Of a stretch of 64,000 bases of DNA, positions 2,280-21,872 are shown one piece after another (position 1 is the stretch's first letter; every line of letters starts with the position of its first letter). Both the position numbers and the translations under genes were made by a program. The stretch covers positions 62,001 through 126,000 of the forward strand of contig NZ_JABVEC010000006.1 in NCBI RefSeq assembly GCF_014323705.1, read 5' to 3'. The notes below the pieces were generated by a model. It did not search any database and was not told where the DNA came from. It saw only the letters and a list, made by a program, of their open reading frames with translations. This DNA comes from Actinomadura alba. GTDB taxonomy: Bacteria; Actinomycetota; Actinomycetes; Streptosporangiales; Streptosporangiaceae.

Positions 2280-2427
2280 CCTCGAACTTCGTGGCCCTGT
2301 ACCTGGTAGCGCTGTACCTGCTTGCCCTGCGGGCTCCCGCCCGTGGTCTCGCAGCCGCCCGCCCCAAGGCCCCACAAGGGCCGCGGACGACTGCGAGATC
2401 ACGGCGGAGGGGTGCACGGGTTGCTCT

Positions 2428-3147: not shown

Positions 3148-3303
3148 TCGTCCACCCGGGCACGGGTTCTGGGAATGGGCGGTGAGCTCGGCACGTTTGC
3201 GTATCTGGCACACTGATAGGGCAACCGCTGCGGTACCGGTTCACGTCCCTGAGCATCACCCGATACGGGGCGACCCGGCGACCGCCACGAGCGAGGAGAC
3301 TCC

Positions 3304-5601: not shown

Positions 5602-6582
5602 GTGAGCCGACGTTATGACTGCTCGGAGCCGATGGAACGGACCCGTGGGATCGCCGAGGCCGTCTCGGCGGTGCGTCGCGGCGAGCTCGTCGTGCTGCCG
5701 ACCGACACGGTGTACGGCATCGGCTGTGACGCTTTCACCCCGAGCGGGGTGACCGCGTTGCTCGACGCGAAGGGGCGCGGCCGTGAAATGCCGCCACCGG
5801 TCCTGGTCGGCTCGGTACGCGCGGCCACCGCGCTGATCGACGATCTCGGTACCTACGGGCAGGATCTCATCGACGAGTTCTGGCCCGGCGCGCTCACACT
5901 GGTATGCCGCGCCAACCCCAACCTCGCCTGGGACCTCGGTGACACCAAGGGCACCGTTGCCGTCCGCATGCCGATGGATCAGCTCGCCCTGGAGCTGCTC
6001 AGGGAGACCGGCCCGATGGCCGTCAGCAGCGCCAACCTGAGCGGGGCCGAGGCGGCACGCACCGCCGAGAATGCGGAGAAGCAGCTCGGCGACGCCGTGG
6101 CGGTCTACCTCGACGCGGGGCCGTCCGGGGAGGGCGAACCCTCGTCGATCATCGATCTGACCGGCCCGGTGCCGCGCCTGCTGCGCGCCGGCGCCATCCC
6201 CGAGGACAGGCTCCGAGGGGTCTGCGGCGTCCTGCTCGTCGACGACGATGACGACGATGAGGACAAGGAAGAGAACGACGTCACCTCTGACGCGGCGGTC
6301 GGCGAGGACACGCTCGCGGAGCCGCCGTCCCTCCGTAAGGACGACGTCGGCGAGGCTCCCGACCTGCGCAAGGACGACGCCGGTGAGGCCCTCGACCTGC
6401 GCAAGGATGGCGAAGCAGGCTCGGCGCCTTCCTTGCGCAAGGATGCCGCGGACGAGAAGTCGAACGACCAGGACGGTTCCGACTTGGGCGCCGGCGAGAC
6501 CGACCGGCCCGGTCCGGAGCCGTCCCTGCGTAAGGAGCCCGGCGACGAGCCGCCGGGCGCAGCCGACCCGGACAAGGCCTGA
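5602..6582 (+). CDS. L-threonylcarbamoyladenylate synthase (Sua5/YciO/YrdC family) with repetitive C-terminal tail
   Basis: Makes threonylcarbamoyl-AMP from threonine, bicarbonate and ATP for the t6A37 modification of ANN-decoding tRNAs. The YrdC domain covers about 10-210 (VVLPTDTVYGIGCDAF, KGRGREMPPPVLV, FWPGALTLV, SSANLSG, SSIIDLTG). The chain then runs about 115 residues further as an acidic, disordered tail: a run of Asp/Glu (DDDDDDEDKEEND), then five copies of a (S/D)LRK(D/E) motif in Pro/Gly/Ala/Asp-rich spacers. The Sua5 C-terminal domain is not recognisable there. GTG start at 5602. It follows prmC as in other actinobacteria. The enzyme call is secure; the tail's role is unknown. Confidence 0.93.
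   Translation: MSRRYDCSEPMERTRGIAEAVSAVRRGELVVLPTDTVYGIGCDAFTPSGVTALLDAKGRGREMPPPVLVGSVRAATALIDDLGTYGQDLIDEFWPGALTLVCRANPNLAWDLGDTKGTVAVRMPMDQLALELLRETGPMAVSSANLSGAEAARTAENAEKQLGDAVAVYLDAGPSGEGEPSSIIDLTGPVPRLLRAGAIPEDRLRGVCGVLLVDDDDDDEDKEENDVTSDAAVGEDTLAEPPSLRKDDVGEAPDLRKDDAGEALDLRKDGEAGSAPSLRKDAADEKSNDQDGSDLGAGETDRPGPEPSLRKEPGDEPPGAADPDKA
6328..6537 (+). repeat. Degenerate LRK-encoding repeats in the Sua5/YrdC gene
   Basis: Five irregularly spaced copies of a short unit (c-t-[c/g]-c-g-[t/c]-a-a-g-g-a) encode SLRKD, DLRKD, DLRKD, SLRKD and SLRKE. The first three are spaced about 30 bases apart. They lie in the disordered tail of the YrdC-domain protein. Confidence 0.75.
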
Positions 6583-6598
6583 CCGGCGCTCCAAGGAA

Positions 6599-6617
6599 GC
6601 CCCGTCCGTGGCGGGGC
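6599..6617 (+). terminator. Hairpin terminator after the Sua5/YrdC gene
   Basis: Arms GCCCCG (6599-6604) and CGGGGC (6612-6617) close a 7-base loop, followed by the pyrimidine-rich CGTCCCTTCTTC. It lies 17 bases after the stop codon and likely ends the rpmE-prfA-prmC-sua5 transcript. Confidence 0.65.
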
Positions 6618-6753
6618 CGTCCCTTCTTCGTCCGGCGGCGGGTGCCATGGATAAGGCACTACGGTTGAATTTGGCACAGGGTGGCGGATTCGGTGGGAAT
6701 ATGACTGTTGCCCGGATTCCCCACCGTGCTCGCGTCTGAACAGGAGCCCCCTG

Positions 6754-7563
6754 ATGGCCGAAGAGATTGCGCCCGATTTGATCGACGTTACCGTGCCCCA
6801 ATCGGCGCGGATCTGGAATCACTGGATGGGGGGCAAGGACAACTACAAGGTCGACCGAGAGGCCGGTGACGCCTATGCCGCGATGTTCCCCGGCATCAGG
6901 GACCTGGCCAAGGCGTCTCGTCAGTTCCTCATCCGGACCGTGCGGCACCTGGCTCGCGAGGAGGGGATACGGCAGTTCCTGGACATCGGTACCGGGCTGC
7001 CCACGATGCAGAACACCCATGAGGTCGCTCAGTCGGTTGCTCCGGACGCCAAGATCGTGTACGTCGACAACGACCTGATGGTGCTGGCGCACGCCCGGGC
7101 GTTGCTGGTCAACACCACCGACGAGGGCGTGACAACTTATATCAATGCCGACTTGCACGAACCCGAGCGGATCGTCGCCGACGCTCGCAACGTGCTGAAC
7201 TTCACCGAGCCGATCGCGGTCATGTTCATGGGCGTGCTCGGCCATGTCACCGAGCTCGATGACGTGAAGTCCATCGTGGCCCGGGTGATGCAGGCCGTGC
7301 CGTCCGGGTCCACCCTGACACTGTGGGACTCCACCGCCACCTCCCACACCGGCGAAGGGTTCACCGACGCCCAGGAGGGCTACGACGACACCGGCGCGGT
7401 GCCTTATGTGCTGCGCAGCCCAGCGGAAGTCAGCCAATGCTTCGAGGGCCTGGAGATGCTAGAGCCGGGCCTGGTGCCGCTCTCCCTCTGGCGGCCGGAC
7501 CAGGTCGACATCGGTGACGTCAAGCCGGTGGACGGCTATGGGGCCGTCGCCCGCAAGCCGTAA
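6754..7563 (+). CDS. SAM-dependent methyltransferase, DUF574/Methyltransf_19 family
   Basis: A 269-aa protein matching the actinobacterial S-adenosyl methyltransferase family PF04672: the N-terminal signature QSARIWNHWMGGKDNYKVDREAG, then the SAM-binding loop FLDIGTGLPT near residues 75-85, VYVDNDLMVLAHARALL, and a C-terminal GLVPLSLWRPD block. Substrates of this abundant actinomycete family are mostly unknown. RBS CAGGAG lies just before the ATG. It is monocistronic between terminators and interrupts the otherwise conserved sua5-wecA junction, so it is probably a lineage-specific insertion. Confidence 0.9.
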   Translation: MAEEIAPDLIDVTVPQSARIWNHWMGGKDNYKVDREAGDAYAAMFPGIRDLAKASRQFLIRTVRHLAREEGIRQFLDIGTGLPTMQNTHEVAQSVAPDAKIVYVDNDLMVLAHARALLVNTTDEGVTTYINADLHEPERIVADARNVLNFTEPIAVMFMGVLGHVTELDDVKSIVARVMQAVPSGSTLTLWDSTATSHTGEGFTDAQEGYDDTGAVPYVLRSPAEVSQCFEGLEMLEPGLVPLSLWRPDQVDIGDVKPVDGYGAVARKP

Positions 7564-20030: not shown

Positions 20031-20675
20031 CTACTCCTGTGCCGAGGGGCCGCCGGGCTTCCACAGGACGTCTCCGTGGTCGGCGTTGACCACCCGGGTC
20101 AGGATGAACACAAGATCCGAGAGCCGGTTGAGGTAGCGCGCGGTCAGTGGGTTGACGCCCCCGGCCGCCGACCGGGTCTCTTCGCCCGGGCCCCCCGCGG
20201 TGCCGTGCGCCTCGATGGCCGCCCAGGTGGAGCGTTCGGCCCGCCGTACGACCGTGCGCGCCACATGGAGCAGCGCCGCTCCGGGCGTACCGCCCGGCAG
20301 GATGAAGCTGCGCAGCGGCCGCAACCGCTCGTTGTGGGCGTCACACGCCTCTTCGAGGCGGGTGATGTAGCCGTCGTCGATCCGCAACGGAGGGTACGGG
20401 GGATCGTCGACGACGGGTGCGCACAGGTCCGCTCCGACATCGAAGAGGTCGTTCTGGATCCGGATGAGCAAAGTGACGATGTCCGCCGGCAGGTCGCCCA
20501 TGGCCACGGCGACCCCGATCGCGCTGTTGGCCTCTTCGACATCGGCGTACGCGGCCAGCCGCGGATCGGTCTTGGCCGTCCTGCTGCCGTCGCCCAGCCC
20601 GGTCGTGCCGTCGTCACCGGTCTTCGTGTAGATCCGGGACAGTACGACCGGTGTCTCTTCACGTTTCGTCGCCAT
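20031..20675 (-). CDS. Cob(I)alamin adenosyltransferase, PduO type
   Basis: A 214-aa enzyme transferring the adenosyl group of ATP to cob(I)alamin, making coenzyme B12. Signature N-terminal TKTGDDGTTGL, then DVEEANSAIG, IQNDLFDVGADLC and the C-terminal RYLNRLSDLVFILTRVVN with the conserved Arg-Leu-Ser-Asp. The ATG at 20675 is preferred over an upstream in-frame GTG. In mycobacteria (Rv1314c) it also lies just past the atp operon. It supplies the cofactor needed by the mutase encoded at 48234. Confidence 0.95.
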   Translation of the reverse strand: MATKREETPVVLSRIYTKTGDDGTTGLGDGSRTAKTDPRLAAYADVEEANSAIGVAVAMGDLPADIVTLLIRIQNDLFDVGADLCAPVVDDPPYPPLRIDDGYITRLEEACDAHNERLRPLRSFILPGGTPGAALLHVARTVVRRAERSTWAAIEAHGTAGGPGEETRSAAGGVNPLTARYLNRLSDLVFILTRVVNADHGDVLWKPGGPSAQE

Positions 20676-20778
20676 ACGCGCCACCCTAGACGCAGGCACG
20701 GAGAGTGACCGACGCCGTCCCCGGCGGCCGGCGCGGTTTGGCGAGGCCCTTAGAGACCGAGGTGTCCGGCGCGGATGC

Positions 20779-20904
20779 GGCGTGCGTCATTCCGTCCGTG
20801 ATCATGCAGTTGTTCGCGGCTGGAGTGTTGGGTGTGTGGCGGGTGGTGAATAAGTGCGTGATCACGGCGGTGAGGGGCCGGGCTGGTCTGGGTGTCGATC
20901 AAGC
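20779..20904. repeat. 126-bp direct repeat, copy 1
   Basis: Aligns to 21084-21209 without gaps, with six mismatches by my count, 305 bases apart. Inside, CCGTGATCATGCA (20796-20808) faces its near-complement at 20855-20867 (one mismatch), so each copy holds a 72-bp element bounded by 13-bp inverted repeats. The copy ends in TCGATCAAGC. No transposase is encoded. It looks like a non-autonomous, MITE-like or regulatory repeat. Confidence 0.8.
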
Positions 20905-20940
20905 ATTGGGGTACTTCTACGTGCCTTAATGCTTGATCGA
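20895..20940. repeat. 13-bp perfect inverted repeat at the edge of repeat copy 1
   Basis: TCGATCAAGCATT (20895-20907) and its exact complement (20928-20940) flank a 20-base loop. The left arm overlaps the right end of repeat copy 1. Copy 2 has only the first ten bases of the left arm and no right arm. Confidence 0.75.
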
Positions 20941-21083
20941 CTGCGTGCCGTGGGTCAGAGCGCGGGGTCGGGCCTTCGGAAGAGGGCCGTGCCGACCGTG
21001 CCGAGCGTCAGTGCGATGGCGGTCAGGGCCACCAGTGGCGTCACGTGAGTTCTGTGGCGGGCAGTGCGGGGACGTGGCTGAAT

Positions 21084-21209
21084 GGCGTGCGTTATTCCGT
21101 CCGTGATCATGCAGTTGTTCGCGCCTGGAGTGTTGGGTGTGTGGCGGGTGGTGAATAAGTGCATGATCACGGCGGTGAGGGGCCGGTCTGCTTTGGGTGT
21201 CGATCAAGC
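21084..21209. repeat. 126-bp direct repeat, copy 2
   Basis: Second copy of the element at 20779-20904. Its internal 13-bp inverted repeat (21101-21113 and 21160-21172) is perfect. It sits between the intergenic spacer and the 3' end of the TetR gene. Confidence 0.8.
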
Positions 21210-21263
21210 CTGGCCGAGATGGAACCCGGCTCTTTGTGGCACGACCCGTTAGTCCGGCCGGGT

Positions 21264-21872
21264 TCAGTTCGGCAGGGCCGAGAGGAAGATGTACTGCGCG
21301 GTTCTGAGCAGATCGTCCTCGGTGGGCCGAGGATCGCCCTGGACGCCCGTCGTGATCAGCTCCTGGACGGCTCCGATCAGCCCGATCGCCAGGTTGTGGT
21401 GGTCGATCTCCTCGAGCACCGTGTGGTCGCGCATCAGCCCGGCCATGAGCGCGGCGAACTCGTTGACGGTGCGCAGCCGCTGTGGCACGAGTGGGTCACC
21501 GGCCCGCCGGACCTCGACATGGGCGATGCGGGCCCGGCGCTCATCACTGATCATGTAGCGGATGTAGGCGCAGAGCCCCGCGCGGACGAGGTCGCGGGGG
21601 GCGTCACCCGCCTGGTCGAGCGCGCTCCGCACGATCGCCATGGCCTCGTCGACGATGTCGCTGTAGACGGCGCTGAGAACGGCCTCTCGTCCATCGAAGC
21701 ACTGGTAGAAGGCCCGGGTTGAGATCTTGGCGTCCGCGCACAGAAGGTCGATGGTGGTGGCGGGATAACCCTGGGTCCCGAACCGGTCGAAGGCTGCGGC
21801 CAGCACGCGTCCCCGGCGCTCTGCCACCCGCTCCTGCGCGGACAGCCCCCGGTAGGTTCGTGACTCGCTCAT
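21264..21872 (-). CDS. TetR/AcrR family transcriptional regulator
   Basis: A 202-aa regulator. The N-terminal helix-turn-helix (about 15-65) reads RRGRVLAAAFDRFGTQGYPATTIDLLC...STRAFYQCFDGREAVLSAVY, the TetR signature. The C-terminal ligand-binding helical domain has MISDERRARIAHVEVRRAG as in regulators of transport or lipid genes. The ATG at 21872 has AGGGGGG six bases upstream; upstream in-frame codons are rejected. Target unknown; candidates are its own promoter, the 38-aa gene just upstream or the ABC/two-component operon beyond. Confidence 0.92.
   Translation of the reverse strand: MSESRTYRGLSAQERVAERRGRVLAAAFDRFGTQGYPATTIDLLCADAKISTRAFYQCFDGREAVLSAVYSDIVDEAMAIVRSALDQAGDAPRDLVRAGLCAYIRYMISDERRARIAHVEVRRAGDPLVPQRLRTVNEFAALMAGLMRDHTVLEEIDHHNLAIGLIGAVQELITTGVQGDPRPTEDDLLRTAQYIFLSALPN

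What the first reader, a model, noticed from the sequence alone, without database searches (positions are those of the whole stretch)
20779..21209. Pair of 126-bp direct repeats, each with an internal 13-bp inverted repeat, in an otherwise empty region
Copies at 20779-20904 and 21084-21209 differ at about six positions and carry CCGTGATCATGCA-type inverted repeats. A separate 13-bp perfect inverted repeat (20895-20940) abuts copy 1. No transposase is near, and the region sits where murA lies in mycobacteria. It could be a non-autonomous mobile element family, a recombination scar, or a regulatory RNA repeat.
Basis: seen in the sequence. Interest (0 to 1): 0.6.

Follow-up and report, generated by a model that had tools for sequence, protein, structure and literature searches.

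The report
Helix-phased intergenic protein-site repeats
The two repeats are a local duplication of a short DNA unit that occurs about 200 times in this actinobacterium, mostly just after the ends of genes and spaced by whole turns of the DNA helix, so it is probably a landing site for a still unknown protein.

Summary
In detail: two 126-bp copies (95% identical), each with facing inverted arms, in a gene-free gap. The pair itself is a local duplication. The block holding it (~565 bp) is missing in a same-genus genome. The 'separate' inverted repeat is a terminator-like hairpin carried with a broken 3' end of an ABC-permease gene.

The unit inside (CGTGATCATGCAGTTGTTCGCG) is not local: 190 matches genome-wide (<=2 mismatches) against 0 for the reversed pattern. 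Relatives in the same family carry up to 766 copies of lineage-specific variants; most have none. (1) Units lie just downstream of stop codons and avoid promoter regions. (2) Facing pairs are spaced in ~10-bp steps; Planotetraspora arrays have a strict 53-bp period. (3) Paired arms do not covary, so a hairpin is not what is selected. (4) Across Planotetraspora the core diverges at 0.02, spacers at 0.24-0.29, third codon positions at 0.16.

Most high-copy genomes lack any REP-type (RAYT) transposase. Best reading: double-stranded sites for an unidentified sequence-specific protein, acting in phased sets at gene 3' ends, perhaps as a two-way transcription roadblock. The protein and the function are inferred, not shown.

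The parts
20698..21263 (.). Block of about 565 bp between the TetR and cobalamin-adenosyltransferase genes that holds everything below; in the same-genus genome G001 the same two genes are about 11 nt apart
20779..20904 (+). Copy 1 of the 126-bp direct repeat
21084..21209 (+). Copy 2 of the 126-bp direct repeat, 95% identical; it interrupts the ABC-permease gene fragment
20797..20818 (+). Repeat unit (family consensus CGTGATCATGCAGTTGTTCGCG), left arm of facing pair 1
20848..20866 (-). Repeat unit, right arm of facing pair 1 (variant CGTGATCACGCACTTATTC)
21102..21123 (+). Repeat unit, left arm of facing pair 2
21153..21171 (-). Repeat unit, right arm of facing pair 2 (variant CGTGATCATGCACTTATTC)
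20894..20941 (.). Terminator-like hairpin next to copy 1; not a member of the unit family but the 3' hairpin of an ABC-permease gene also found at G000 contig 36
20897..21085 (-). Decayed copy (86% identical, one frameshift in the coding part) of the 3' end of an ABC-transporter permease gene plus its hairpin; relative at G000:C36:1434-1623

Best explanation
The window holds one duplicated facing pair from a genome-wide family of ~20-30 bp asymmetric units (pyrimidine-rich flank + CGTGATCATGCA + variable 3-4 nt + TTCGCG). Shown: the units lie almost only between genes, closest to stop codons and away from promoter regions; they are arranged in helix-phased facing pairs or tandem arrays; their core stays intact at a locus while the rest diverges. 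Inferred: each unit is the double-stranded binding site of one sequence-specific protein (not identified), several copies of which must sit on the same face of the helix. Inferred with less certainty: the bound array works at gene 3' ends as a two-way barrier (transcription roadblock, terminator or insulator) in place of an RNA terminator. Copy number changes by local duplication and by an unknown dispersal route; local duplication produced the 126-bp pair seen here.
For: Family: 190 matches with <=2 mismatches against 0 for the reversed pattern; 258 against 13 with <=3; reversed weight matrix 0 hits in all four genomes. Phasing: 35 non-homologous facing pairs cluster at 38-39, 48-50, 58-60, 67-70, 79 and 88 bp, R = 0.75 at period 10.0, P <= 0.0002 against two nulls; 138 of 145 same-strand neighbours in P. 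silvatica are exactly 53 bp apart, i.e. five turns. Not a hairpin: 56 facing pairs match at variable sites 0.561 against 0.581 +/- 0.018 shuffled. Selection in place: 86-105 orthologous units in Planotetraspora, core 0.018-0.020, spacer 0.24-0.29, third codon positions 0.16, other intergenic 0.12; further slow positions at 33-39 and 52 of the 53-bp period. Position: in tandem gene pairs the stop side is closer in 77 of 94 clusters (median 21-70 nt); divergent regions have 0.14-0.71 units/kb, convergent 2.1-5.2, coding about 0.02. 3' ends with units have weaker hairpins in two genomes (P = 0.001 and 0.009).
Against: No binding protein was found and no transcript data exist. Most intergenic regions have no units, so this is not a general terminator system. 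In tandem gene pairs + and - units are about equally frequent, so there is no polarity with respect to transcription. Not all spacings are phased: G001 has arrays of ~35-nt period, and facing distances in P. silvatica are not significant on their own (P = 0.12). The hairpin difference could partly reflect slightly lower G+C and is not significant in the window's own genome (P = 0.29). Gene conversion between units could mimic part of the core conservation. Loci were fetched because they carry units, so fractions of occupied regions are overestimates.
Confidence: 0.5

Rival explanations
1. Selfish miniature mobile elements of the REP/REPIN or MITE type: the facing pair is the mobile unit and is copied by a transposase encoded elsewhere; 3'-end location only reflects tolerated insertion. 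Helix phasing would then reflect a transposase that must pair two ends on a very short element.
For: Hundreds of copies, intergenic, facing doublets, alternating arrays, strong lineage-specific amplification, loci that differ between congeners including an absence at the window's own site in G001.
Against: No Y1 (RAYT-type) transposase in G000, G001, G002, P. silvatica, P. mira, P. kaengkrachanensis, P. phitsanulokensis, G060, G027, G052, G163 or G158. The two arms of a pair carry independent variants, unlike REPINs, where compensatory changes are common (PMC3116915). No clean insertion footprint was found. Genes lying between array halves are mostly housekeeping genes. Inert copies should not keep the core at a tenfold lower divergence in place.
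Confidence: 0.3
2. RNA element: the units form 3'-UTR hairpins that end or stabilise transcripts, or a small RNA.
For: Facing pairs can fold strongly (z about -4 to -5 as RNA on the + strand) and sit just after stop codons.
Against: No covariation between arms, and flanks of abutting pairs match less than shuffled. About half of the G000 clusters are not simple pairs and 28 of 75 are singletons. No T-tract terminators in the region. No Rfam match here. Helix phasing has no meaning for RNA loops.
Confidence: 0.1
3. Nucleoid-organising or fork-barrier sites: the same protein sites serve chromosome structure, and the 3'-end location merely avoids promoters and genes.
For: Phased double-stranded sites conserved in place; both orientations used equally in tandem gene pairs.
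Against: Closely related genera lack the family entirely, which is odd for a chromosome-structure system; chromosomal distribution could not be examined in these draft genomes.
Confidence: 0.2
4. Only a local duplication or recombination scar with no wider family.
For: True for the 126-bp pair itself and for the gene fragment beside it.
Against: About 200 further copies in the genome and hundreds in relatives.
Confidence: 0.02

Closest known systems
REP / BIME / REPIN elements with RAYT transposases
   Same: Short, high-copy, intergenic, facing doublets and mixed arrays, lineage-specific sequence variants
   Different: The unit is not itself a tagged palindrome; no RAYT in most high-copy genomes; arms do not covary; core conserved in place; spacing in whole helical turns. 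The GTAG/CGTC survey (PMC3733652) lists no Actinobacteria among the phyla with such repeats.
Stoperators of cluster A mycobacteriophages (sites of the immunity repressor)
   Same: Asymmetric protein sites distributed over a genome; there they stop transcription elongation (PMC9283540, abstract)
   Different: Chromosomal, hundreds of copies, in phased pairs and two-way arrays, longer motif; no repressor homologue was looked for
Short DDE transposons whose ends must lie in helical phase (IS50/Tn5 type, from memory)
   Same: Would explain facing distances in steps of one helical turn
   Different: No transposase, target-site duplication or co-inherited arms found
CRISPR arrays
   Same: Regular repeat-spacer arrays of ~53 bp in Planotetraspora
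   Different: Two facing half-arrays, spacers share conserved positions, many small arrays per genome between ordinary genes

Membership tests
REP/REPIN (RAYT-mobilised) | High copy number in extragenic space | tested here: met
REP/REPIN (RAYT-mobilised) | Inverted doublets as the common arrangement | tested here: met
   (in Planotetraspora, facing tandem arrays instead)
REP/REPIN (RAYT-mobilised) | Each unit is a palindrome with a GTAG or CGTC tag | tested here: not met
   Weight-matrix consensus has no such tag and only a short TGATCA palindrome; definition from PMC3733652
REP/REPIN (RAYT-mobilised) | Compensatory changes between the two arms | tested here: not met
   definition from PMC3116915
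REP/REPIN (RAYT-mobilised) | Cognate Y1 (PF01797) transposase in the genome | tested here: not met
   absent from 12 unit-bearing genomes; present in four others that carry units (G036, G277, G133; fragments in P. thailandica G276), whose link to the units was not examined
REP/REPIN (RAYT-mobilised) | Excised transposition intermediates | not testable with these tools
   needs population sequencing
MITE | Terminal inverted repeats with target-site duplication and an autonomous partner | tested here: inconclusive
   no clean filled/empty junction in G000-G001 comparisons; genes between array halves are not transposases, but most of the genome was not read
Intrinsic terminator / structured RNA | Hairpin maintained by covariation, with T-tract | tested here: not met
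Stoperator-like protein sites | Asymmetric conserved site in intergenic regions | tested here: met
Stoperator-like protein sites | One orientation relative to transcription (as recalled for phage L5) | tested here: not met
   sense and antisense units about equal in tandem gene pairs
Stoperator-like protein sites | A repressor that binds the sites and stops elongation | not tested
   binder unknown; needs biochemistry

The most novel reading that the evidence does not exclude
A family of actinobacteria uses arrays of helix-phased sites for an unknown DNA-binding protein as two-way, protein-dependent transcription barriers (or chromosome insulators) at the ends of a subset of genes, with the site sequence changing from lineage to lineage, presumably together with the protein.
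Probability: 0.3. Interest if true: 0.85.

Novelty: new variant of a known kind. Interest (0 to 1): 0.62.

Why it matters
Dispersed bacterial repeats are usually read as selfish elements or RNA hairpins. Here the data point to double-stranded protein sites: spacing in helical turns, no arm covariation, and a core kept at tenfold lower divergence in place. If right, this is an uncatalogued genome-wide regulatory or structural layer in Streptosporangiaceae, and it makes a sharp experiment possible: find what binds CGTGATCATGCA and ask whether it stops RNA polymerase. It may also bear on how genes in these high-GC actinobacteria are insulated from read-through.

Tried and rejected
Rfam over the window: nothing at the locus. 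RAYT/Y1 search: absent in most high-copy genomes. Plasmids: no match. Viral contigs: 11 isolated single matches, no arrays. Idea that genes caught between array halves are autonomous mobile copies: they are BipA, CobD/CbiB, UbiA, thiolase, a histidine phosphatase and the like. Idea that a regulator sits beside the largest or promoter-side clusters: neighbours are ordinary, mostly metabolic genes. Hairpin/RNA model: rejected by lack of covariation. Class-wide search: outside the family about one match per genome or fewer, mostly one recurrent 19-mer that looks like a conserved coding sequence. Literature searches for these repeats in Planotetraspora or for helix-phased REP spacing found nothing.

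Full report
What is in the window. The reported pair is exact: 126 nt at 20779-20904 and 21084-21209, 95% identical. Each copy holds two facing copies of a unit, CGTGATCATGCAGTTGTTCGCG on the + strand (20797, 21102) and a variant on the - strand (20848-20866, 21153-21171). The gap lies between a cobalamin adenosyltransferase gene (20031-20675, -) and a TetR gene (21264-21872, -), with no called gene between. In genome G001, of the same genus, these two genes are about 11 nt apart. The inner piece 20897-21085 is an 86% identical, frameshifted copy of the 3' end of an ABC-transporter permease gene with its hairpin; the relative sits at G000:C36:1434-1623 next to an ABC ATPase gene. So the 'separate 13-bp inverted repeat' is that gene's terminator-like hairpin. 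Copy 2 interrupts this fragment, so the 126-bp pair is best read as a local duplication of one facing pair.

The unit is a genome-wide family. With up to 2 mismatches the 19-nt core has 190 matches in the window's own genome, and the reversed control 0; with up to 3, 258 against 13. Same-genus G001 has 246. Hundreds of copies of variants occur in the five Planotetraspora species (G024 P. silvatica 589; the other four 171-766) and in G060 (508); smaller sets occur in G027, G036/G277, G052, G133, G158 and G163. Most other members of the family are at background. Motif variants are lineage-specific, for example GTGATCTTGCAGTTTGTCG in G163 and a fixed 39-nt palindrome of GTGATCATGCAATCGTTCG in G133. 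Outside the family (class-wide sample of 394 genomes) about one match per genome or fewer is seen, mostly one recurrent 19-mer; one exception, G103, is listed under things noticed.

Anatomy. Weight matrices give a pyrimidine-rich flank, CGTGATCATGCA, 3-4 variable positions, then TTC(G). In G000 and G001 the units form facing pairs, abutting pairs (18-nt linker) and mixed arrays. Distances between facing units fall at 38-39, 48-50, 58-60, 67-70, 79 and 88 bp. After removing pairs with related inner sequence, 35 pairs give R = 0.75 at period 10.0, P <= 0.0002 against both a uniform null and a null that keeps the overall distribution. In P. silvatica and G060 the units form half-arrays facing each other, (+)n(-)m; same-strand neighbours are 53 bp apart in 138 of 145 cases in P. 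silvatica and mostly 52-53 bp in G060. Exceptions exist: an 18-unit array of ~35-nt period in G001, and facing distances in P. silvatica that are not significant alone (P = 0.12).

It is not selected as a hairpin. Facing pairs could fold, but the variable positions of the two arms do not match more than chance: 0.561 against 0.581 +/- 0.018 for 56 pairs; flanks of abutting pairs match less than chance. REPINs, by contrast, show common compensatory changes (PMC3116915).

It is conserved in place. In orthologous arrays of Planotetraspora the unit core diverges at 0.018-0.020 per site, the variable middle at about 0.27-0.30, the spacer at 0.24-0.29, third codon positions at 0.16 and other intergenic DNA at 0.12. 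A second slow stretch lies at positions 33-39 of the period (GACCTGC box) and another at 52. Caveat: units were picked because the query copy has an intact core, and gene conversion could contribute. Unit number at a locus still changes between species, with extra units at the outer ends; in P. phitsanulokensis the gene between two array remnants is inverted.

Position. Units are almost absent from genes (about 0.02 per kb) and rare between divergent genes; in tandem gene pairs the cluster is closer to the upstream stop codon in 77 of 94 cases, with medians of 21-70 nt, against 74-114 nt to the next start. In P. silvatica and G060 the 3' ends with units have weaker RNA hairpins than those without; a small G+C difference may contribute, and G000 shows no significant difference.

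What it is not, as far as tested. RAYT (PF01797) genes are missing from 12 unit-bearing genomes, including most of the highest-copy ones. Plasmids have no relatives and viral contigs only isolated matches. Genes flanking arrays or lying between half-arrays are ordinary.

Interpretation. Shown: family, arrangement, phasing, lack of covariation, conservation in place, 3'-end location. Inferred: a sequence-specific protein binds each unit on double-stranded DNA and acts in same-face sets. Weaker inference: a two-way barrier at gene ends. The main rival, selfish mobile elements, still explains the lineage-specific bursts best, and both could be true if a mobile site family was taken into use.

Noticed in passing
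window 3230-3283 (+): Ribosomal protein L31 leader (Rfam RF03158), above the gathering score.
   Followed up: no
window 2385-2403 (-): A degenerate unit-like match, CGTGATCTCGCAGTCGTCC, followed by GCG; possibly a diverged member of the family.
   Followed up: no
L381 (G001:C107) 6387-7333: An 18-unit array with ~35-nt period, mostly one orientation, in a 1.4-kb gap between alanine dehydrogenase and glycerate kinase genes; the period is not a whole number of helical turns.
   Followed up: partly
G103 (another family of the class), contig 9, 47884-48056: Tandem array of CGTGATCATGCAGCCGCTC with 22-nt period, all one orientation, 19 matches in that genome; same core, possibly independent.
   Followed up: no
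L225 (P. phitsanulokensis) 6380-7160: The gene between two array remnants is inverted relative to P. silvatica, which suggests recombination between facing arrays.
   Followed up: partly
G000 loci L031-L082: A second over-represented word, TCGATCAAGGATC / CCGATCCTTGATCG, about 8 copies in 1.1 Mb; may be another repeat or hairpin family.
   Followed up: no
Planotetraspora arrays, positions 33-39 of the 53-bp period: A conserved GACCTGC box more than half a period away from the core, possibly a contact of a second domain or protein.
   Followed up: partly
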